The position numbers and the translations under genes were made by a program. DNA of 64,000 bases from NCBI GenBank assembly GCA_029256105.1, contig JAQSYO010000001.1, forward strand, positions 124,001-188,000. The letters run 5' to 3'. Positions within the stretch are counted from its first letter, which is position 1. Each line of letters begins with the position of its first letter. The notes beneath the pieces were generated by a model. It was not told where the DNA came from and made no database searches. It worked only from the letters and a program-made list of their open reading frames with translations. Of this stretch, positions 19,307-29,933 are shown in pieces. This stretch comes from Herbinix sp. (GTDB lineage Bacteria; Bacillota; Clostridia; Lachnospirales; Lachnospiraceae).

Positions 19307-20521
19307 TTATTTGATAGCTACTTTTGTAAAGACATTTTCTGTTCTTAGAATCTTTTTAAGGGAGTCGAACTTATTAGCTGCAAAAGCATCGCCATTCCAA
19401 TTAGTATCACTGTATACATATTTAAGTTCCAATGAATTATTAAGCAACTGAATATCTATTTCTTGCGGGTACACCTTGTCTTTGTCTTTTAATCCATATG
19501 GCATACGCCCCCAGTCTTGCAATTCATCACATAAAATTAAAAGATAACTGAGGGGGTGATTTTCAGCATCAAGTCGATCTAAATGAAATGGTGTCTTCAT
19601 TAATCCATTTTTATAATAATTATGGAGTATTATCGAAGTTGCTGAATTCAAAATTGGGAAATAAAAATAAACTGGGTTCCATCCTTGGCTATCTACTAAG
19701 TGATAGAACCATCTTAGTACAATTAATGAACTGTAGTACCCATGGTCAACGTACTTATCTTCATTCATTCTATCAATATAATCAAACATTTCATGGTTGA
19801 TGGTGTTAAAATCAATTCCAAAACTTTTGCTTATTTCCATAGCAATAAGTGATAATGAATTAGTATCATATTTCTTGAAATCGGGATATTTTAGAAAGAA
19901 TTCATCTTCATAAATGGAGTTGGGGTTCATCTTAGGTAATAAATTAAAAGAATCAGTGTTTTTAATAAACATACTTGCTTCTAAGGAATGATCAGTTAGG
20001 CCGCATTTAACTGAGATGAATTTTAGATATTGTTTTAACTGATTGTAAGAAATTTCTATTGGGTACGCTATATCATGGAAAAGAGAAGCTATACCCCAAC
20101 GATAGAAAAACTCTTCATGCTTTGTCTTATAAAAATCTAAATAATCAGTATTAATAATATTAAATTTTTCGAAGAACAATCTTAGATTGCCATTGCCACC
20201 ATATATAGCAATACCTAAAAGAAAAGTATATACTGAGTGAATAAAGTGGTCTCTTTGTTTTTCTGTAAGAACGCCTGCTTTTTCTTCAAAAAATTTCATT
20301 TCATTTATCATTCGAATAATAGAGTCATCATTATTGATCATCCAATAGGTACGTGAAAAAACTTCATAAACGGCTAAGGCCTTAACTGTTGATAATGAAT
20401 CTTCTAAAAAAATTTTTATTACTTGAATAAAATCTTTCTTATACGATGTATCATTATTTATGTCTTCATAAATCTCTAATTCATTAAAAAAATTTTCGCA
20501 ATATAATAAAAGTGAATTCAT
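19307..20521 (-). CDS. HD-domain protein, putative phosphohydrolase of a defence cassette
   Basis: About 404 residues from ATG 20521 (AAGGAGG 6 bases before it; ATG 20524 is a possible alternative). A metal-dependent HD arrangement is visible: His92/His95 in RDHFIHS, the His149-Asp150 pair in SLFHDIAYP, His260 in VDHGYY, His300, and Asp332 in LLILCDELQDWGR. This spacing fits HD-superfamily phosphohydrolases that act on nucleotides or cyclic nucleotides. No membrane segment or signal peptide. A truncated TIR-like gene follows and a MazG-TIR gene is divergent. Function is inferred from fold motifs and context only. Confidence 0.6.
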   Translation of the reverse strand: MNSLLLYCENFFNELEIYEDINNDTSYKKDFIQVIKIFLEDSLSTVKALAVYEVFSRTYWMINNDDSIIRMINEMKFFEEKAGVLTEKQRDHFIHSVYTFLLGIAIYGGNGNLRLFFEKFNIINTDYLDFYKTKHEEFFYRWGIASLFHDIAYPIEISYNQLKQYLKFISVKCGLTDHSLEASMFIKNTDSFNLLPKMNPNSIYEDEFFLKYPDFKKYDTNSLSLIAMEISKSFGIDFNTINHEMFDYIDRMNEDKYVDHGYYSSLIVLRWFYHLVDSQGWNPVYFYFPILNSATSIILHNYYKNGLMKTPFHLDRLDAENHPLSYLLILCDELQDWGRMPYGLKDKDKVYPQEIDIQLLNNSLELKYVYSDTNWNGDAFAANKFDSLKKILRTENVFTKVAIK

Positions 20522-20819
20522 CATAGCCCTCCTTGGCAAGATCTGCCACTAAGATAATCCTACACAATACTAGTAAATATGTCAAATTAAAATATCAAAT
20601 CACTTAATATCCTGATAGAAGTATTTAAAAATCATTATTAGTGATAGTTGAATACTTTATTATATAATATATTATTTATGGACATGTAAATGTAAAATGT
20701 GGTAAAATTGAATTACATATATTAGAAAATTATTTTATACATATCATACGGCAGAGTATATTTGATTATAAAAATGCAAATGAGAAATGAATAAATACTT
20801 TAGGTAGATGGAGAAAATT

Positions 20820-22388
20820 ATGAGAGTAAAATATAGTAATTTTAAAGAAGCTTCAATCGATGATTTTTACAATGATTTTAATGAAGTATGGGCTAGAGAT
20901 TCAAATGAGAGGTCGATTTTTGATCTTTGGTTACATGTTGTCGATCATGGATCAAAAATAGCAAGAGCAGTAAAGCAAGATAATCCGCCAGGTATCATAG
21001 ATGATATAGCTGATACTACAGTATGGCTGATGAGCTTTATATCTTTCTGTGAAAAACTGTCATCTAATGACATTAATAGTTTAACATCAATTGAAAATCC
21101 ATCTGAAATTATATGGAATAAATATCCTGCAATCTGTCCTATGTGTTTTGATAATTGGATAATTGATAAATTGGAGTTATCAAATTCAAAATCTCCACTA
21201 GCAGACTTTAATGAAAGGTATAAAGGTTTTGAGGAGTTTTTCGACGAAAAGATTTATAATGAATTATATTTAATTACTTGTGATTGTCTTAATCGTACAA
21301 CGATTAATATGGAGAAAAACGTAATAATTGATAGCCTAAGAACTGAGTTGGACACAATTAGAAGAGAGTATGCAAATCATCTTAAAATAAAGGACAAAAA
21401 ACTACTTAAAGTCATGGACATTGAAAATATGTTTAATAAAATATATTCAAACTATTATCAGGTTTTATCGCTTGAGTCAATAATTTTTAACTTATTAGGA
21501 GAAATTGGAGAAGCCTCACAGGCAATTGTTAATCTGTATACATACGATGAATCTAGGGAACCTTTCTCATATGAATTACTTAAAAAAAGGAAACAAAGAT
21601 TTTCTGAGGAAATAGCTGATATTTTTGCATGGTTATTTGCTGCATCTATAAAAATAAGATTAACATATGGAAAAATTGCTCATTTGTATTATATTACATT
21701 AACTAAATCTAATAAATGGTCAGAAAATATTTATGATTTAAACTTCGCAGATATTATTTGGGCTAAGTATGGTATGACGTCGGATGGAGCTAATTTGGCC
21801 CATCTTAATTGTCCTGGTTGCCAATCTGCACCATGTATATGTCAAAGAGATCTAAAAATAAATTGGGATTCTACAAGTGCATTTGCTTTAGAAACAAAAG
21901 ATAATTCGCAGTTGGTAAATATTGAAAGTGAAGAAAAGAATTTGGTGTTTATTAGTTATAGTCATAAGGATGTTAAAAGTCTTAATCAAATAAAGTCAAT
22001 GCTTATGCCGCTTTTACGAGATAAAAAAATAAGCTTATGGGATGACACTAGAATTCAGCCTGGAGAAAGGTGGCGTGAAGAAATCGATTCAGCCTTAAGT
22101 CGTGCTAAAGTAGCATTACTACTTGTTTCGTCAGATTTTTTAGAATCAGATTTTATTGCAAAAAACGAATTACCTCCATTGCTAGAATTAGCAAAGACAG
22201 GAGGGACAAAGGTATTATGGGTACCTCTTAGTTCCTGTATGTATAAAGAAACAGAGTTGATTAATTATCAAGCAGTTTGTGATACTGGTAAGCCACTTGA
22301 TACATTGAGTAAACCTAAAAGAAACAAGATACTAGTTGATATTTGTGAAAAAATAAAAGAATATGCTCAAGAAAAAACAGTAATGTAA
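20820..22388 (+). CDS. double MazG-like / TIR fusion protein, putative anti-phage effector
   Basis: About 522 residues from ATG 20820, which has TGGAGAA before it; ATG 20808 is in frame but poorly placed. Two tandem halves each show a MazG-like helical domain followed by a Cys cluster. First half: degenerate metal site (D42..S45, D62..D65) with CPMC at 106-109 and CDC at 154-156. Second half: canonical E228xxE231 and E264xxD267, then CPGC (331-334) and CIC (339-341). The second MazG half should bind Mg2+ and hydrolyse a nucleoside triphosphate-like substrate. The C-terminus (~374-506) is a TIR_2 domain (FISYSHKD, WDDTRIQPGERW) with putative catalytic Glu450 in KNELPPL, as in NAD-cleaving TIRs. 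It is followed by a terminator. Confidence 0.8.
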   Translation: MRVKYSNFKEASIDDFYNDFNEVWARDSNERSIFDLWLHVVDHGSKIARAVKQDNPPGIIDDIADTTVWLMSFISFCEKLSSNDINSLTSIENPSEIIWNKYPAICPMCFDNWIIDKLELSNSKSPLADFNERYKGFEEFFDEKIYNELYLITCDCLNRTTINMEKNVIIDSLRTELDTIRREYANHLKIKDKKLLKVMDIENMFNKIYSNYYQVLSLESIIFNLLGEIGEASQAIVNLYTYDESREPFSYELLKKRKQRFSEEIADIFAWLFAASIKIRLTYGKIAHLYYITLTKSNKWSENIYDLNFADIIWAKYGMTSDGANLAHLNCPGCQSAPCICQRDLKINWDSTSAFALETKDNSQLVNIESEEKNLVFISYSHKDVKSLNQIKSMLMPLLRDKKISLWDDTRIQPGERWREEIDSALSRAKVALLLVSSDFLESDFIAKNELPPLLELAKTGGTKVLWVPLSSCMYKETELINYQAVCDTGKPLDTLSKPKRNKILVDICEKIKEYAQEKTVM

Positions 22389-22466
22389 TGTTTATTGGGG
22401 GATGTTAAAAAAGCATTGTGAGTTAATTCTAACTGCGATATAGATTCGAATCTTTATAGCCTGATT

Positions 22467-22495
22467 AAAAAACAAGTTCCTAAGGACTTGTTTTT
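22467..22495 (+). terminator. terminator of the MazG-TIR gene
   Basis: AAAAAACAAGT and ACTTGTTTTTT pair around TCCTAAGG, with six T at the 3' side. Confidence 0.85.
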
Positions 22496-22510
22496 TATGA
22501 TTTTCTCTAA

Positions 22511-22693
22511 AATAGATCATTTAATGATGAGACAAGAGTGCAGGCCATCAATATTCTAAACGAATTGTCAAAAGGAAAGAGACTGGTCGGAGTTATTTCG
22601 CATGTTACAGAATTGAAAGCTCAGATAGGGACAAAGCTTGTTATTACGAAAGGTGATAAGGGTAGCAAGGCAAGGTGGGCAATCGGAGAATAA
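22511..22693 (+). pseudogene. C-terminal remnant of sbcC (SMC-like exonuclease subunit)
   Basis: An open plus-strand frame with no usable start gives ~60 residues: SFNDETRVQAINILNEL, KGKRLVGVISHVTELK and a KGDKGSKARW end, then TAA at 22691-22693. This is the D-loop/H-motif end of the SbcC ATPase (the SHV-ELK segment carries the switch His). The preceding ~1000 residues are absent, cut just after the MazG-TIR terminator. It marks a junction where the defence genes probably replaced most of an sbcC gene. Confidence 0.75.
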
Positions 22694-24365: not shown

Positions 24366-24833
24366 TTAATTTGTAGGAATATAGTTGCTTATAAAAAAAC
24401 TAGTTTTTTCGCTTATTTTATCATAATAGCCTTCATATTCATAATACAATAGATCTTTATGGAAGTTCTCCTCTGAAATGAAATCTCCGAATGGTATTAA
24501 TACAGAAATGAACATCTCTTCTTTGGGTTTCATAACTTTCTTAGTAAGGACTGCTTCTATTTTATACTTATTTTCTACATAACCATTTTTTTGTTTGATC
24601 GGGTAATTAAAAAAGACGTTATCATTATAAATCTTTAAGTCGCTATTATTTACTATTTTTATTATTAGTAAATCCCCTTTATTTGAAGCAGTACTATCTT
24701 GAACAGCAAAACTCAGATTGTTTATAACATTCGCAACAAGCTCTGCTTTTGGGGTTATGTTGTTAATATATATAATCACCATACTTACTAAAATTATAGT
24801 AATAATTGCGGCAACTCCAATTTTTTTCTTCAT
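24366..24833 (-). CDS. small membrane-anchored extracellular protein, unknown
   Basis: About 155 residues from ATG 24833, which follows GGAGG; the ATG at 24845 lies over that site. One N-terminal membrane helix (~5-24) after a KKK cluster, then a ~130-residue external domain with beta-rich pattern (IIKIVNNSDLKIYND, FISVLIPFG) that could be Ig-like. No Cys and no catalytic motif. It is the last gene of the agr-linked group and nearly overlaps the upstream subtilase gene (11 bp gap), so the two proteins may work together, for example as partner or inhibitor of the protease. That pairing is inference. Confidence 0.55.
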   Translation of the reverse strand: MKKKIGVAAIITIILVSMVIIYINNITPKAELVANVINNLSFAVQDSTASNKGDLLIIKIVNNSDLKIYNDNVFFNYPIKQKNGYVENKYKIEAVLTKKVMKPKEEMFISVLIPFGDFISEENFHKDLLYYEYEGYYDKISEKTSFFISNYIPTN

Positions 24834-24844
24834 TATTTCCTCCA

Positions 24845-25669
24845 TTAATCACATACACTTTTAAGATAACTCTTGGCTTTTTCTATATCTAATAGACCAT
24901 AACCAAAAATATCATCCTTACCATCAAGTCCAAAATCTATGGTAGCATTTTTGATAACATTCATCAGCATTTCATTATTTAAATCTGGATAATCTATTTT
25001 TAACCTTACAATTTTAGAAGTAAACAATGCTGCTGACGCGGATGATCCAATAATCATTTTCACTTTATTATCTTCTGTTATAAGAGTCTCAACATTTTCG
25101 CCTAATTCACATACAAGAATCATATCATTTCTATTATTATTAATCAAGGGTTCATTATTTGAGTCTATGCAAGACACGGAATATACCCCAGGATAAGAGG
25201 CTGGATATAAATATTGCTGTGTATAATCATCTCCGCTAGAGCATATTATTATAATTCCTTTCTCAATTGCAGAATCTATTACTCTTTTTAATTCCGAATC
25301 ATCTTTATACGTACCTAAACTAATATTTATGATATCTACATTTAAATCTTTGGCTTTCTCAATACCTTTGATTAAATTATCTATATCTAATTTATCGTAC
25401 TCCCCTACATCTATAATATGAACCTTAACACTATTACTTGCATGAATATTTCCTAAAATAATACTTGATACATAGGTTCCATGGGTATTATCCCCTTCTT
25501 TTGTGATGTTATATTTTTTTATTTGATACTCTTTTGACCAATCATCTAAATTAATACCAGTGTCAATAACGGCTATCTCAATTATATCTCTTTTTTTATA
25601 TGTTAATATCGCTAAAGTAGCGGCTGTAATCATTAAAAGAAAAATTATTATACATTTTTTATTTTTCAT
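24845..25669 (-). CDS. membrane-anchored S8 subtilisin-like protease, atypical oxyanion residue
   Basis: 274 residues from ATG 25669 (AAGGGGGA before it). The frame is open to 25774, but that stretch overlaps a strong hairpin. N-terminal membrane anchor (~6-23). Catalytic triad visible: Asp36 (AVIDTGI), His63 (NTHGTYVSS), Ser210 (IGSSASAA). The oxyanion-hole Asn of subtilisins is replaced by Asp147 (SSGDDY), as in a few proprotein convertases, which may lower or alter activity. There is no propeptide, unlike secreted subtilases. It sits downstream of agrB and a secreted protein, so processing of that protein or of the autoinducer is plausible. Family sure, role inferred. Confidence 0.78.
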   Translation of the reverse strand: MKNKKCIIIFLLMITAATLAILTYKKRDIIEIAVIDTGINLDDWSKEYQIKKYNITKEGDNTHGTYVSSIILGNIHASNSVKVHIIDVGEYDKLDIDNLIKGIEKAKDLNVDIINISLGTYKDDSELKRVIDSAIEKGIIIICSSGDDYTQQYLYPASYPGVYSVSCIDSNNEPLINNNRNDMILVCELGENVETLITEDNKVKMIIGSSASAALFTSKIVRLKIDYPDLNNEMLMNVIKNATIDFGLDGKDDIFGYGLLDIEKAKSYLKSVCD

Positions 25670-25756
25670 TACAATATCCCCCTTATTATGATTACCAGTT
25701 TCGTCAATGGTACTTTTATACATATCAAGACCTTTTTCGCTTGTATAGCAAAGGTA

Positions 25757-25804
25757 CCCTGATGGGTACACCATAGATTATCCTCTATGACACACCCATC
25801 AGGG
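25757..25804 (-). promoter_or_regulatory. strong intergenic hairpin before the subtilase gene
   Basis: CCCTGATGGGT and ACCCATCAGGG form 11 perfect pairs, continued by CATAGA/TCTATG across a symmetric internal loop. No T run follows on the minus strand, so it is more likely an mRNA processing or stability element than a clean terminator. Confidence 0.55.
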
Positions 25805-25930
25805 ATTATTTTAATATCTTATTGATTTAGTCATCCCAACCCAGATGTGTAGTTCCTTGTTAAGTTGCTTGTTACTATGTACCCTACCAATAACAGAGAG
25901 CTGGTTGATCCGTTTTCAGAGTTATATCTA

Positions 25931-26995
25931 TTATTTCGTACAGTATTCATGTGCATATGACAAACTAATTGCCACTTGCTGGATTTGAGTCCACCAAATA
26001 TTTTCATTTACACTAAAATTGAATACTCCTGCAATTGTTCCTCCAACACTCGCTGTAGCCATCCATTGATACGAGCTATGTCCTTGCGTCCATATCGTAG
26101 GAGTTCCGTTATAATGAGACTCCGATATATCAACACCCGCACCTTCACTATTTGCAACAAAGATGCCTGCACCACCTGAGCTTCCAATCACAGAGTTTAA
26201 ATAGATATCATGATTTCCATTTAGTACACTATAATTGTATAACATGGTTTGATAATAAATACCTGCCGGACTAGTTTGTGTCCAAGTAAATGTCCTTTGT
26301 TTAAAGCCGCTTTCTCCATAAATATCGATTTGTTTTACCTCAACCGTCGCATAAGTATTAACTGAATCATCATTAATTTCGCTTAATTGTTTTTGACTTT
26401 GTTCCACTACAACAGTTGAACCATCATCAAAAGTCATCGAATATTTTGTTCTGTATGGATTTTCTTGCATCAGGCTGTTCATTGCTTCTTGTTTTTCTTC
26501 GATAGTAACTTTATTTCGATGCACGCTTATCTCATTTTCAAAGATATCAATAATAAACACCTTATCTTCATTACGAATACTTAAGTCGTTATTGCCCCTG
26601 CTTAAGTCATCTTTGTTAACACCAGCGTCATTTTTAGAGTTAATAATAACAACTTTACCATTAATATACTCAATTTTTTGCCCTTTTTGTGCCATTTCAT
26701 CAAGAATCCTTTGTATATTAACATACTTGGTTGCATCTGTTTCCGTTATATCCATTTGCATTAATTCATCTTTATTAAGCTTCTTATACGGCAAATTAGT
26801 AGATTTACTATCATCGGGACTACTAAATCTCATAATTAATCCAGTTAGGTTAGCTGAACCATCTTCTCCCGATGCCTTTTTCAGATCAACTGCGGTTGTT
26901 CTCGACAAAAATTCATTATTAGTACTTGCATAAACATTGAATGATGGAACGATTAATAATAATCCTACGATAAATAGACATAATGTTTTTTTCAT
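25931..26995 (-). CDS. secreted protein of unknown function, agr-associated
   Basis: 354 residues with a classical signal peptide (MKKTLCLFIVGLLLIVPS, cleavage near VYAS). A charged, Lys/Asp-rich region (~30-215) could be a propeptide. The C-terminal ~140 residues (from about 215) are rich in Tyr, Trp, Ser and Gly with beta-strand pattern (QRTFTWTQTSPAG, SSGGAGIFV, WMATASVGGTIAG), like a secreted toxin or enzyme core. It ends in HEYCTK. Start ATG follows AAGGAGG. It is 22 bp downstream of agrB and upstream of the subtilase, so it belongs to the quorum-controlled unit. No family recognised. Confidence 0.65.
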   Translation of the reverse strand: MKKTLCLFIVGLLLIVPSFNVYASTNNEFLSRTTAVDLKKASGEDGSANLTGLIMRFSSPDDSKSTNLPYKKLNKDELMQMDITETDATKYVNIQRILDEMAQKGQKIEYINGKVVIINSKNDAGVNKDDLSRGNNDLSIRNEDKVFIIDIFENEISVHRNKVTIEEKQEAMNSLMQENPYRTKYSMTFDDGSTVVVEQSQKQLSEINDDSVNTYATVEVKQIDIYGESGFKQRTFTWTQTSPAGIYYQTMLYNYSVLNGNHDIYLNSVIGSSGGAGIFVANSEGAGVDISESHYNGTPTIWTQGHSSYQWMATASVGGTIAGVFNFSVNENIWWTQIQQVAISLSYAHEYCTK

Positions 26996-27017
26996 TTGAA
27001 TTCCTCCTTATAATCTC

Positions 27018-27584
27018 TTACTGTTTAATTAATCTTTTACTACCTAGTAAAATCATAAAACTCAAAGTAATGATTGCCATCATGAGACAGACAGAAATGC
27101 TTGCATTTATAAACCAGAATAAGAAAATCATTCCGAAAAGTATTAACAATAATACTCTAGAATTCCTTCTAAAAACTATTTTCTCTAATTGGTTTAACGG
27201 TTTATTTGGGTCCTCTATTGGAGCTTTAATATAAACAATTCCTCCAGAGAATAATACTATGAGGATACTGCCAAGGTTTATCCAAGAAAGTAGCCATATT
27301 CCTAAAAGTGCTGTTATAATTAGCAACACAGAGAATATGTAACATCTTATCTGTGTCTTTGCATGATACCCCCCGGCATAACTTCTTAGAGGTATATATG
27401 CTATTAAAAATACAACACTTTGCCAAACCATCCCAAAAGCAAATCCGATTATTACAGTTGTAAAAATATTCAACAATAATACCAATCCTTGTTGCAGTCC
27501 ATATGAAAATAATTCTTTATCATCAGAAGTGATTATTCCATGCTTTACAAATCTATCAGCAATGCTGATTTTTACCAATCTCAT
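27018..27584 (-). CDS. agrB: AgrB, accessory gene regulator B protease
   Basis: 188 residues, multi-helix membrane cysteine protease that cuts the C-terminal part from AgrD and helps form the thiolactone ring. Catalytic His74 and Cys81 lie in RSYAGGYHAKTQIRCY, as in all AgrB proteins. Several hydrophobic helices follow. ATG 27584 overlaps the agrD stop in an ATGA arrangement, so the two are translationally coupled. The cytoplasmic KAPIEDPNKPL segment is also typical. Downstream genes encode the secreted protein and protease. Confidence 0.93.
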   Translation of the reverse strand: MRLVKISIADRFVKHGIITSDDKELFSYGLQQGLVLLLNIFTTVIIGFAFGMVWQSVVFLIAYIPLRSYAGGYHAKTQIRCYIFSVLLIITALLGIWLLSWINLGSILIVLFSGGIVYIKAPIEDPNKPLNQLEKIVFRRNSRVLLLILFGMIFLFWFINASISVCLMMAIITLSFMILLGSKRLIKQ

Positions 27585-27727
27585 TTATTCTTTCGAAACC
27601 GTTCAGCACCATGTGGTAATTTCGGCTGATGTGCAACAAATGTACAATTAATGTTTACATTTGCTGCTGTAACAAATAATGCCAATCCGGCTAAAATCCT
27701 TCCTAAGGTATAAATTAGATTATTCAT
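27581..27727 (-). CDS. agrD: AgrD-type cyclic lactone autoinducer precursor
   Basis: 48 residues on the minus strand, starting ATG at 27725-27727 after a strong AAAGGAGGG site. Amphipathic leader (MNNLIYTLGRILAGLALF), then the signal region NINCTFVA, then the charged recognition tail HQPKLPHGAERF. The pattern Cys + four residues before HQPK-P matches clostridial AgrD, so the mature signal is probably a five-member thiolactone C-T-F-V-A with a short N-terminal tail. The stop overlaps the agrB start. Ring borders are inferred from family habit. Confidence 0.9.
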   Translation of the reverse strand: MNNLIYTLGRILAGLALFVTAANVNINCTFVAHQPKLPHGAERFRKNK

Positions 27728-27807
27728 TGGCTTACCCTCCTTTCTCGTTTAGAATTGTTAGGTTTCTTGTTACATGCATATCATATAATAAAATTCAATT
27801 AATTTAC

Positions 27808-27866
27808 ATAATATGTCATAAAAGGCACTTTTATTGTAATAACTCGTATGAATGTTTACAAGTAAC
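27808..27866 (-). promoter_or_regulatory. candidate agrD/agrB promoter
   Basis: Minus-strand TATTAT (27808-27813) with no -35. Two GAGTTAYT elements lie upstream with a 23-bp period (GTT at 27841-27843 and 27864-27866). The GTT-to-minus-10 distance (27 bases) is almost that of the agrA promoter (28), but the sites fit the LytTR consensus poorly. Confidence 0.3.
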
Positions 27867-27931
27867 TCATTGCATTAATAAAGCATGTAAAATGAAAAAG
27901 TTAATCCACATGCAGGAATTTACTATTACAT

Positions 27932-29233
27932 TCAACGCATTAATAAAACAATAACAGAAAAATCATTCTCAGTGATTTCAATATTAAATATTCCCTGATA
28001 TTTATCAATAACATTTTTTACATTCATAAGGCCAATACCATGATTAAGTTTATCCTTTTGTGAAGTAATAATTTTATCTCCTTTATAAAGCACTACTCCG
28101 TTATATTTATTCTTAATATTAATTCTCAAGACATCTTTATCTAATCGAATAATAATACTAATTTTTCGATTTTCCTTCCCTAGTTTATCGGAAGCATTAA
28201 TTGCATTATCTAATAGATTGCCCAGAATAACTGTCATATCCAATGGATCGATCGTTAACTCTTCTGGAATATTGATATCTAGTAGTACTTGGATATCTTT
28301 TTGTTCAATTACCTGAAGTTTATAATTTAAAATACAATCGATAATTATATTTCCCGAACGTATAAATTTTTCATGTTGATTACTTACCTTTAATAAATTT
28401 GCCAAATATTCCACTAATCTACTCTGTTCATTTTTCTGAACCATCATTTGAATTATAGTCAGATGATTTACTATATCATGACGAAAAGATCTTGTTGTAA
28501 GTAATACTTTTTTCATAAGCTCGAATTGATTTTCATAATAACGGTTCTGCTGCAATAACATTCTCTTTTCCATTTTATCTTCATATGATGTGATTATATT
28601 GTCATATAATGTGAATGTAACAATATTTAAAACAAACAAAAAAAATATGCACAATATGATTTGAATAATACTAAGTCCCCTCGCATAAAACAAAGTCATA
28701 ATTATATATAACGTAAGTAGCAATATAGTAACAATACTAATCCAATACGATAATGATACTTCTTTCCCATTCTTTATATTGTGGAAATTCTGGAGAACAA
28801 GCACAACAGCATACGTCAAAATGTGGATGAAAATAATACCAAATATGGATGTATAGTAATTCCTTTCGAACAAGGGGAAGTTGATATACCCAGTAATTAA
28901 TACCACAAAGCTTTCTATACATAGCAATATAATATAAATAAATAATGTGGATAAAACTCTCTGTTTATTGCTTACCTTATAATTTAAAGATAAAAATATG
29001 AATCCCATAATATTTATCAGCATCATAATTATTGGTATGTTTATTACCAAATAAGATACTGTGATAAGTAAATAATAGATAATGTAGGATGCGTATTCCA
29101 AGAATCTATATCTTACCTTATCACCATAAAATAGATAGATAAACTTATATATTAAATATGTCCTAAAAATATTTATCAAAATATAAACCCAGTCGTAAAT
29201 AGTCAGCTGCAAATTAAACTCCTTCTTTCTCAT
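27932..29233 (-). CDS. agrC: AgrC-like sensor histidine kinase
   Basis: 433 residues. Six or seven hydrophobic helices in residues ~12-215 form the peptide-sensing membrane domain. The cytoplasmic part is of the GHKL/SPOB type: His252 in SFRHDIVNHLTI, N-box LGNLLDNAINASD, and G-box GIGLMNVKNVID. It is the receptor for the agrD-derived signal. ATG 29233 lies inside the agrA gene with no good site. TTG 29212, just after the agrA stop and 6 bases past AAGGAG, is a credible alternative start. Directly upstream of agrD on the same strand. Confidence 0.88.
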   Translation of the reverse strand: MRKKEFNLQLTIYDWVYILINIFRTYLIYKFIYLFYGDKVRYRFLEYASYIIYYLLITVSYLVINIPIIMMLINIMGFIFLSLNYKVSNKQRVLSTLFIYIILLCIESFVVLITGYINFPLFERNYYTSIFGIIFIHILTYAVVLVLQNFHNIKNGKEVSLSYWISIVTILLLTLYIIMTLFYARGLSIIQIILCIFFLFVLNIVTFTLYDNIITSYEDKMEKRMLLQQNRYYENQFELMKKVLLTTRSFRHDIVNHLTIIQMMVQKNEQSRLVEYLANLLKVSNQHEKFIRSGNIIIDCILNYKLQVIEQKDIQVLLDINIPEELTIDPLDMTVILGNLLDNAINASDKLGKENRKISIIIRLDKDVLRINIKNKYNGVVLYKGDKIITSQKDKLNHGIGLMNVKNVIDKYQGIFNIEITENDFSVIVLLMR

Positions 29234-29933
29234 ATTGTAATAAAAGCCGCATTACTTCATCACTTTTATTTCTACTAATTGGAAGAATTATATTATTTGA
29301 CATAACAACCTCCTTCCGATTAAACTTTATAACGTGCGCATAGTTTATTAAATACGATTTATGTATAAGAAAAAAATGATATTTACTTAATTTTTGACTA
29401 ATATCACACAATCTATCGTAAAAATAGCTTTCACCGTCAACTCCAATCATTTTCACTTGTCTTTTATTAGCCTCAAAATAAAAAATACCTTTAATCGATT
29501 TTCTATAAAAATTATGACCTTGATGATAACTAAATGTATTTCCAAGTAGTTCAACCAACTCTATTGCTTTTTCAATATCCTTTATAATTTTTTCTGGTTC
29601 CAATGGCTTATGTAGAAAATGCATTGGCCTCACGTCAAACAACGCTCGATAATAATTATCGAGGGCTGAAATATATACTATTTGTATTGTTTCATTTTTC
29701 AATTCCTCACGTATTCTTCTGCCGACCTCGACACCGCTAATTTGTTTTAACTCAATATCAAGAAACACCAAATCAAACATTTCTCCCTCACTTAAAAATT
29801 TACACAATTCTTCCCCTGAATGGAAAACCTCAATATTAATGTCATTTATGACTTTACTTCCATAGTCTAATATAATTCGTTCGATCTCTGAACAAATATA
29901 TTTATCATCATCACACACTGCTATACGAAACAC
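29214..29933 (-). CDS. agrA: AgrA-like response regulator (receiver + LytTR)
   Basis: 239 residues. Receiver domain with CDDD acidic cluster, phospho-acceptor Asp59 (VFLDIEL) and Lys in HKPLEP. The C-terminal LytTR DNA-binding domain (~135-235) includes FYFEANKRQVKM and HKSYLINYAHV. ATG 29933 follows AAGGAGGA. It is first in the order agrA-agrC-agrD-agrB, unlike the classical BDCA order. A LytTR-type repeat pair lies ~170 bp upstream, which suggests positive autoregulation. Confidence 0.9.
   Translation of the reverse strand: MFRIAVCDDDKYICSEIERIILDYGSKVINDINIEVFHSGEELCKFLSEGEMFDLVFLDIELKQISGVEVGRRIREELKNETIQIVYISALDNYYRALFDVRPMHFLHKPLEPEKIIKDIEKAIELVELLGNTFSYHQGHNFYRKSIKGIFYFEANKRQVKMIGVDGESYFYDRLCDISQKLSKYHFFLIHKSYLINYAHVIKFNRKEVVMSNNIILPISRNKSDEVMRLLLQYEKEGV

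What the first reader, a model, noticed from the sequence alone, without database searches (positions are those of the whole stretch)
20820..22388. Fusion of two MazG-like halves, two Cys clusters and a C-terminal TIR domain
Seen: the second half carries E228xxE231...E264xxD267 and the first a degraded version, each followed by CPxC...CxC; the C-terminus is a TIR_2 domain with Glu450. Known: MazG-like enzymes hydrolyse NTPs or modified nucleotides, and bacterial TIRs cleave NAD in anti-phage systems. Inference: the MazG part senses or edits a nucleotide (for example phage-modified or alarmone) and the TIR kills the infected cell. The internal duplication with one dead and one live metal site suggests a sensor/enzyme split.
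Basis: partly seen in the sequence, partly recalled or inferred. Interest (0 to 1): 0.92.

Follow-up and report, generated by a model that had tools for sequence, protein, structure and literature searches.

The report
Double MazG sensor fused to TIR
A bacterium carries a single gene that joins a worn-out and an intact copy of a nucleotide-handling domain to a TIR domain, and relatives of its front half occur as passenger genes in several unrelated kinds of phage, so it may be a one-gene anti-phage suicide switch with a sensor of an unusual kind.

Summary
The ORF 20820-22388 (+) encodes two MazG-like units, each with a four-cysteine cluster, and a C-terminal TIR domain. The N-terminal part belongs to a rare family; I found 9 other distinct members, some close to each other. 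In 10 of 10, half 1 lacks the Glu pair (ExxE) and half 2 keeps ExxE...ExxD. A tree groups all first halves and all second halves used (supports 77 and 69, modest). Relatives lie in P1-like phage-plasmids, at the Orf30 spot of P2-like phages, in a Vibrio filamentous phage and in a Photobacterium prophage; one is beside an HNH effector gene, one has an AbiTi-like module. Six of the nine came from phage, plasmid or virus collections, so that share is biased. Best reading: a single-gene abortive-infection protein in which a MazG-derived nucleotide sensor switches on a TIR NADase. Defence and ligand are inferred. The TIR fusion was seen once. New variant of a known kind.

The parts
20820..22388 (+). 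Fusion gene, 522 aa (526 aa if started at 20808): MazG-like half 1, Cys cluster 1, MazG-like half 2, Cys cluster 2, TIR
   Evidence: GGAG 6 nt before the ATG at 20820
20847..21146 (+). MazG-like half 1 (residues 14-113); ExxE lost, Asp at both positions of the second pair
   Evidence: HMM of single-unit MazG-CPxC proteins, 16.4 bits; profile of 9 doubles matches SSO3215 (1vmg) E 1.5e-7; residues
21135..21287 (+). Cys cluster 1: C110, C113, C158, C160 (44 residues between the pairs)
   Evidence: the four Cys are invariant in 9 doubles
21471..21641 (+). MazG-like half 2 core with E232xxE235 and E268xxD271
   Evidence: Pfam MazG 222-278, 16.2 bits, below cut-off; invariant acidic residues
21810..21842 (+). 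Cys cluster 2: C335, C338, C343, C345
   Evidence: aligned with the other doubles except L108, which is cut by its contig end
21933..22367 (+). TIR domain
   Evidence: Pfam TIR_2 E 1.1e-11; PADLOC ThsB1 E 9e-21; Foldseek lists mainly TIR structures, E 0.0037 or more
22167..22169 (+).
   Evidence: aligned with Glu in 6 of 6 TIR rows in 12 of 15 alignment settings, 4 of 6 in the other 3 (6 of the 8 loci used); that this Glu is catalytic is recalled
19307..20521 (-). Divergent neighbour, about 404 aa, HD-hydrolase-like motifs (RDHxxH, LxHDxxY); possible partner, unproven
   Evidence: no family over a cut-off; motifs shared with 2 distant relatives; the HD label is mine, by eye
22466..22497 (+). 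Terminator-like stem after the fusion gene
   Evidence: consensus scan only (2 found, 1.3 expected)

Best explanation
A single-gene, probably horizontally acquired anti-phage protein. The N-terminal pair of MazG-derived units is a nucleotide-binding sensor: half 2 keeps the metal/nucleotide site, half 1 is a structural or regulatory pseudo-subunit, and each is pinned by a four-cysteine (perhaps zinc) cluster. A nucleotide that appears or changes during infection binds half 2, the protein assembles, and the TIR domain cleaves NAD+ and stops the infected cell. Half 2 may hydrolyse the ligand and so act as a reset. Shown: the domain order, the paired units, the dead/live split, the mobile-element setting of most relatives found, and different C-terminal modules. 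Inferred: nucleotide sensing, NAD cleavage, abortive infection, zinc.
For: Acidic set kept in half 2 in 10 of 10 doubles and ExxE lost in half 1 in 10 of 10; the window shares only 19-24% with the eight others aligned. All first halves and all second halves used form separate clades. C-terminal module varies: TIR here, AbiTi/PDC-M14B-like in L020, a tail of about 90 aa, helix-like by eye, in the six aligned. Settings: between S and V, where phage P2 has the nonessential Orf30, in two P2-like contigs (L098, L101); P1-like phage-plasmids, 19 of 5426 E. coli genomes, all on plasmids, gene not at that place in reference P1; filamentous Vibrio phage; between packaging and major head genes in Photobacterium; beside an HNH gene of CBASS/PDC-M68A type in L019. 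The three closest plasmid TIRs lie near helicase/AAA/PDDEXK, type I restriction, or Piwi and SIR2 genes. No match to the N-terminus in the 33 other genomes of the genus or in 294 of 295 of the order.
Against: No assay and no co-conserved gene proves defence. The TIR fusion was seen once. Six of the nine other doubles come from phage, plasmid or virus collections, so the phage setting is partly a sampling effect; of the three from genome contigs one is in a prophage, one by an HNH gene, and one (L020, 5.3-kb contig) has neither. The ten are not independent: L014 is 79% identical to P0004. Of six sequences scanned, none has a firm PADLOC hit in its MazG part (weak LmuB hits, best E 0.0011). The two half-clades are not exclusive sisters: the best split holding both also takes in 8 single-unit proteins (support 33), so one duplication or a fusion of two related units is open. 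The low GC of the gene pair is not special in this window (24-30 kb is as AT-rich). Structure models are poor (mean pLDDT 62.5 and 54.2). Nothing identifies a ligand.
Confidence: 0.5

Rival explanations
1. Defence protein whose MazG pair binds a phage protein (for instance a phage nucleotide enzyme) rather than a nucleotide; the acidic site is kept for folding or metal only. The TIR is again the killer.
For: Single-gene TIR protein SpbK works through interaction with phage protein YonE (abstract start in the listing). The window protein has long inserts of its own in both halves, as a protein-binding surface might.
Against: All four acidic residues of half 2 are kept in 10 of 10 doubles, more than a mere scaffold needs.
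Confidence: 0.25
2. The family is a phage aid, not a defence: MazG activity removes alarmones or damaged nucleotides, as reported for phage Atd1, and the TIR copy has been co-opted for something else.
For: Phage MazG-like Atd1 counters TIR-STING defence according to a review (passages read). Doubles sit in phage genomes.
Against: Here the MazG pair is fused to a TIR that keeps its Glu. One relative carries, and one adjoins, an effector-type module. The gene sits at accessory spots, is rare, and is not at these spots in reference P1 and P2.
Confidence: 0.12
3. The TIR makes a signalling nucleotide (ThsB-like) for a separate effector, perhaps regulated by the divergent HD-like protein.
For: Best PADLOC model for the TIR is ThsB1 (72.4 bits). 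The HD-like gene is divergent from it across one intergenic region.
Against: No ThsA-like gene seen among the ORFs of at least 80 aa listed around it (by eye; not searched genome-wide). HD-like relatives were found in only 3 of 246 genomes of the order, own included, and I noted none by eye beside other doubles (not searched). Profile rank does not tell ThsB from effector TIRs.
Confidence: 0.12
4. Housekeeping house-cleaning enzyme or regulator with no link to phages.
For: Single-unit MazG-CPxC proteins are widespread in planctomycetes, archaea and others. Flanking genes in the window look metabolic by eye. L020 has only metabolic-looking neighbours.
Against: No match in the 33 other genomes of the genus; TIR fusion; own genome has a separate ordinary MazG with two MazG stretches.
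Confidence: 0.06

Closest known systems
Single-unit MazG proteins with C-terminal CPxCxxxPCxC (Pfam MazG/PRA-PH; nearest solved structure SSO3215, 1vmg)
   Same: Same unit: acidic ExxE...ExxD set and the four Cys; L024 matches 1vmg at E 6.9e-16
   Different: One unit, mostly 131 aa or less (63 of 77); the window has two units, one without ExxE, and a TIR
MazG / all-alpha NTP-PPase enzymes (E. coli MazG, 2q73, DCTPP1)
   Same: Half 2 acidic set; profile match to 2q73; weak fold match to DCTPP1
   Different: Below the Pfam cut-off, Cys clusters, fused to TIR
Thoeris ThsB
   Same: TIR most like the ThsB1 model among PADLOC models
   Different: No ThsA-like neighbour seen; sensor part is MazG-like
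Single-gene TIR defence proteins such as SpbK (PMC12847820, listing only)
   Same: Sensor part plus TIR in one protein (domain layout of SpbK recalled)
   Different: Different N-terminal part (recalled)
Predicted MazG defence genes of DefensePredictor (PMC13092281, passages read)
   Same: MazG named there as a predicted, unvalidated defence domain
   Different: Architecture not given in the passages that I saw; the term TIR does not occur in its text
Phage MazG-like Atd1 (review PMC10419184, passages read)
   Same: MazG-like protein in a TIR-related conflict
   Different: Anti-defence; no fusion to TIR mentioned in the passages

Membership tests
MazG-like all-alpha NTP-PPase superfamily | ExxE...ExxD acidic set | tested here: met
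   Half 2: E232, E235, E268, D271, in 10 of 10 doubles; half 1 lacks ExxE in 10 of 10
MazG-like all-alpha NTP-PPase superfamily | Pfam MazG score over the curated cut-off | tested here: not met
   Window 16.2 of 22 bits. Of four other doubles with a MazG row, P0003 (26.7) and L018 (23.1) pass, L019 (17.4) and P0004 (14.7) do not; L020 has none
MazG-like all-alpha NTP-PPase superfamily | All-alpha four-helix fold | tested here: inconclusive
   Both halves all-alpha but mean pLDDT low. 8 of 50 listed Foldseek rows have prob >= 0.80: seven named DCTPP1, dCTPase or RS21-C6 and one unnamed mouse protein (2a3q), E 0.6-1.4; four unrelated rows rank above them by E
MazG-like all-alpha NTP-PPase superfamily | Pyrophosphohydrolase activity | not testable with these tools
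   needs enzyme assay
MazG-CPxC family, doubled | Four-Cys cluster after each unit | tested here: met
   Both clusters in the window; 72 of 77 single-unit loci have the motif
MazG-CPxC family, doubled | Same origin of the doubling as the other members | tested here: inconclusive
   h1 and h2 each one clade with the window in it, UFBoot 77 and 69; h1+h2 are not exclusive sisters
TIR domain | Pfam TIR_2 over cut-off and conserved Glu | tested here: met
   45.8 of 28 bits; Glu aligned
TIR NADases | NAD+ cleavage | not testable with these tools
   needs assay
Thoeris | ThsA-type effector gene next to the TIR gene | tested here: not met
   The adjacent gene is HD-like with no SIR2 or other effector hit; genome-wide not searched
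Anti-phage defence gene | Carried at variable spots of mobile elements or near defence genes | tested here: met
   For relatives: 7 of 9 other doubles in phage, prophage or phage-plasmid sequence, 1 by an HNH effector, 1 with neither; sampling bias. For the window itself no known defence gene was seen adjacent
Anti-phage defence gene | Lowers phage yield | not tested
   experiment

The most novel reading that the evidence does not exclude
A new class of immune sensor: an old tandem MazG pair, one unit dead and one live, works as a gauge of the cell's nucleotide pool with a built-in hydrolytic timer, and phages and bacteria have plugged different outputs onto it (TIR, AbiTi-like, other tails). 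In the window the divergent HD-like gene is its nucleotide-processing partner.
Probability: 0.25. Interest if true: 0.85.

Novelty: new variant of a known kind. Interest (0 to 1): 0.62.

Why it matters
MazG domains have been proposed as defence parts, but a 2026 paper lists them as not experimentally validated (PMC13092281, passages). This gene gives a directly testable case: the MazG pair is fused to an effector-type domain whose expected output (NAD loss) is easy to measure, and relatives on P1-like E. coli plasmids and in P2-like phages can be tested in K-12. If nucleotide sensing is right, a house-cleaning fold has become an immune receptor by pairing two units and losing one active site.

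Tried and rejected
Pfam, NCBIfam and PADLOC on the whole protein: firm hits are to the TIR only. Plasmid, phage and virus searches with the window's own N-terminus found one Vibrio phage hit at E 4e-5; that weak hit opened the family. Searches of whole genomes found no further double and no second TIR fusion: 295 genomes of the order, 34 of the genus and 398 of the phylum gave the window's own genome and one weak 16.7-bit MazG-only hit; 301 genomes of the phylum of L020 and 369 of the class of L018, at E 1e-10, gave only the seeds. The genome-contig scan kept the best 80 of 239 relatives, ranked by likeness to the Vibrio protein, so a TIR-fused relative could be among the 159 not shown. Of the 80 kept, 3 were doubles and 77 had one unit; 5 of those 77 lacked the Cys motif and were dropped from the HMM. 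For the tree two rows, L108's cut second half and one single-unit protein, were dropped for gaps or identity.

Empty site: the only other genus genome with the downstream gene has different genes upstream, so no clean empty site could be shown. HD-like neighbour: no hits on plasmids or virus contigs, no solved relative (best E 0.87). The tails of the other doubles do not resemble the AbiTi-like end of L020 (hhalign prob 3.4). TIR relatives in phage records: none at E 0.01. Fold search of the full model was swamped by TIR chains. Low GC as a sign of transfer: weak, as other parts of the window are equally AT-rich. Literature: MazG with TIR domain, defense and phage gave 4 papers, MazG with Thoeris 3, MazG with TIR, NACHT and effector none, MazG with anti-phage 14, MazG-like with prophage and abortive infection 4. 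I read passages of PMC13092281, PMC9503650 and PMC10419184, and of two papers on phage hotspots in which MazG does not occur; none of these passages describes this fusion. The other papers of those lists I saw as listings only, the library holds only open papers, and Burroughs 2015 is not held. So 'not in print' is not established. The labels P1-like, P2-like and filamentous rest on records and synteny; that the Photobacterium prophage is of PM2 type is recalled, the tools show packaging and major head genes on either side. The umuDC label in L108 and other gene names given as 'by eye' come from no call.

Full report
What is in the sequence. The ORF 20808-22388 (+) has 526 codons. Numbers here count from 20808. 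The C-terminus is a TIR_2 domain, 45.8 bits against a cut-off of 28. PADLOC's best models for it are ThsB1 (E 9e-21) and a SAVED-TIR model (E 2.6e-13). Pfam sees MazG in half 2 at 16.2 bits, below its cut-off of 22, and no MazG in half 1.

How the family was found. The N-terminal 371 residues matched only their own genome among 295 of the order, nothing on plasmids and one phage record, a 330-aa protein of a filamentous Vibrio phage, at E 4e-5. That protein has the same plan: two units, two Cys clusters, but no TIR. It led to a protein 29% identical on 17 E. coli plasmid records, and then to virus contigs and genomes. Together there are 10 distinct doubles: the window, the Vibrio protein P0003, the P1-like P0004, L014, L018, L019, L020, L098, L100 and L108, the last cut by its contig end. 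They are not all independent; L014 is 79% identical to P0004. The genome scan also brought 77 loci with one unit; in 63 of them the open frame is 131 aa or shorter, and 72 have a C-terminal CPxC..CxC. The four of these that I scanned pass the MazG cut-off.

Is the doubling more than chance? An HMM of the 72 single-unit sequences finds two units in all nine other doubles. In the window it finds half 1 at 16.4 bits and half 2 in two pieces of 13.7 and 9.6 bits, 43.5 bits in all. The best listed domain among 1000 shuffled sequences had 6.7 bits. The 72 were picked with patterns from an alignment that includes the window, so the test is not wholly independent. The window is the most diverged member, with inserts inside both units. 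A profile of nine doubles matches SSO3215 (1vmg) in half 1 at E 1.5e-7 and 2q73 in half 2 at E 0.006. When the halves are aligned to the single-unit proteins, half 2 has the whole acidic set in 10 of 10 and half 1 lacks the first pair, ExxE, in 10 of 10. The window's half 1 still has Asp at both positions of the second pair. The four Cys of cluster 1 and E232, E235, E268, D271 and W275 are invariant in the nine-sequence alignment, in which the window shares 19-24% with the others. A maximum-likelihood tree of 90 sequences over 93 columns puts all ten first halves in one clade (UFBoot 77) and the nine second halves used in another (69), window included in both. The supports are modest. The two clades are not exclusive sisters: the best split that holds both also takes in 8 single-unit proteins (support 33). 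So the doubles most likely share one origin, but whether by duplication or by fusion of two related units is open.

Where the relatives sit. P0004 lies on P1-like phage-plasmids, typed IncY in the three records examined, among par, ant and hok genes. It occurs in 19 of 5426 E. coli genomes, always on plasmids. Reference P1 and P7 align only up to the gene before it, and reference P1 has pmgF and rlfBA there. L098 and L101 (the contig of L014) are P2-like and carry the gene between S and V, where P2 has Orf30, marked nonessential. L100 lies after an integrase gene and L108 after tail-fibre and umuDC-like genes. L018 lies between packaging and major head genes of a Photobacterium prophage. L019 has an HNH gene of CBASS-effector type about 100 bases upstream. 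L020 has an extra C-terminal module matching PADLOC's PDC-M14B and AbiTi, and its 5.3-kb contig shows only metabolic-looking neighbours. So 7 of 9 are in phage-related sequence. Six of the nine came from phage, plasmid or virus collections, so this share is inflated. The three from genome contigs are one prophage, one beside an HNH gene and one neutral.

The window's own surroundings. No known defence gene was seen adjacent. A divergent gene (19307-20521, -) has HD-hydrolase-like motifs (RDHxxH, LxHDxxY) shared with two distant relatives, but no family over a cut-off. The block from about 19 to 22.5 kb has 27-32% GC against 37-45% in the genes on either side, but 24-30 kb of the same window is as AT-rich, so this says little. 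The fusion's N-terminus has no match in the other 33 genomes of the genus. The downstream gene is found in one of those 33, with different genes upstream, so I cannot show an empty site. The genome has no second TIR_2 match and has an ordinary MazG with two MazG stretches elsewhere.

The TIR. Its three closest plasmid relatives (38.8-44.6% identity, Bacteroidota) are near helicase/AAA/PDDEXK genes, type I restriction genes, and Piwi plus SIR2 genes. E454 aligns with Glu in 6 of 6 TIR rows in 12 of 15 alignment settings and in 4 of 6 in the other three. That this is the catalytic residue is recalled.

Structure. AlphaFold2 gave mean pLDDT 62.5 for the whole chain and 54.2 for residues 1-359. 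In the whole-chain model the TIR (381-520) and the cores of both halves (about 31-80 and 221-280) have block means of 70-91; the rest is poor. Both halves are all-alpha. Foldseek with the whole chain lists mainly TIR structures. With residues 1-359 the four best rows by E are unrelated helical proteins (E 0.14-0.38). The 8 of 50 listed rows with probability of at least 0.80 are seven chains named DCTPP1, dCTPase or RS21-C6 and one unnamed mouse protein, at E 0.6-1.4 with poor superposition. This agrees with the NTP-PPase fold and does not prove it.

How it may work. Conservation of the half-2 site at this divergence argues for nucleotide or metal binding. Constant loss in half 1 argues for a pseudo-subunit. 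Different C-terminal modules argue that the MazG pair is a sensor or trigger. With TIR as output, the simplest picture is ligand binding, assembly and NAD+ cleavage. The ligand is unknown. Protein sensing, as for SpbK (listing), is the main rival.

Verdict. What is added here is the family: a rare tandem MazG, one dead and one live, carried by unrelated phages and joined to different C-termini. I rate it a new variant of a known kind.

Noticed in passing
window 22526-22690 (+): A 55-codon open stretch that looks like the C-terminal end of an SbcC/SMC-type ATPase (by eye, recalled), probably a gene remnant just downstream of the fusion; no other copy in the genome at E <= 0.1.
   Followed up: partly
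window 24366-29933 (-): Possible agr-type signalling block: AgrB-like (27018-27584), sensor kinase and LytTR-type regulator, with a subtilisin-like and secreted proteins beside it (by eye).
   Followed up: no
L126 566-4705: Hymenobacter plasmid with Piwi, SIR2-family and TIR genes in a row.
   Followed up: no
L018 7129-7802: The prophage packaging gene is read as two overlapping ORFs that match successive parts of phrog_2666, so it may be frameshifted.
   Followed up: no
L127 1103-2980: On a virus contig a TIR 42-43% identical to the window's is fused to a repeat-rich N-terminus (Sel1/TPR-like by eye), so this TIR type is joined to other sensor parts too.
   Followed up: no
L024 and the other single-unit loci: A widespread small MazG with a C-terminal four-Cys cluster (72 of 77 loci) in planctomycetes, Armatimonadota and archaea; the nearest solved protein is SSO3215.
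   Followed up: partly
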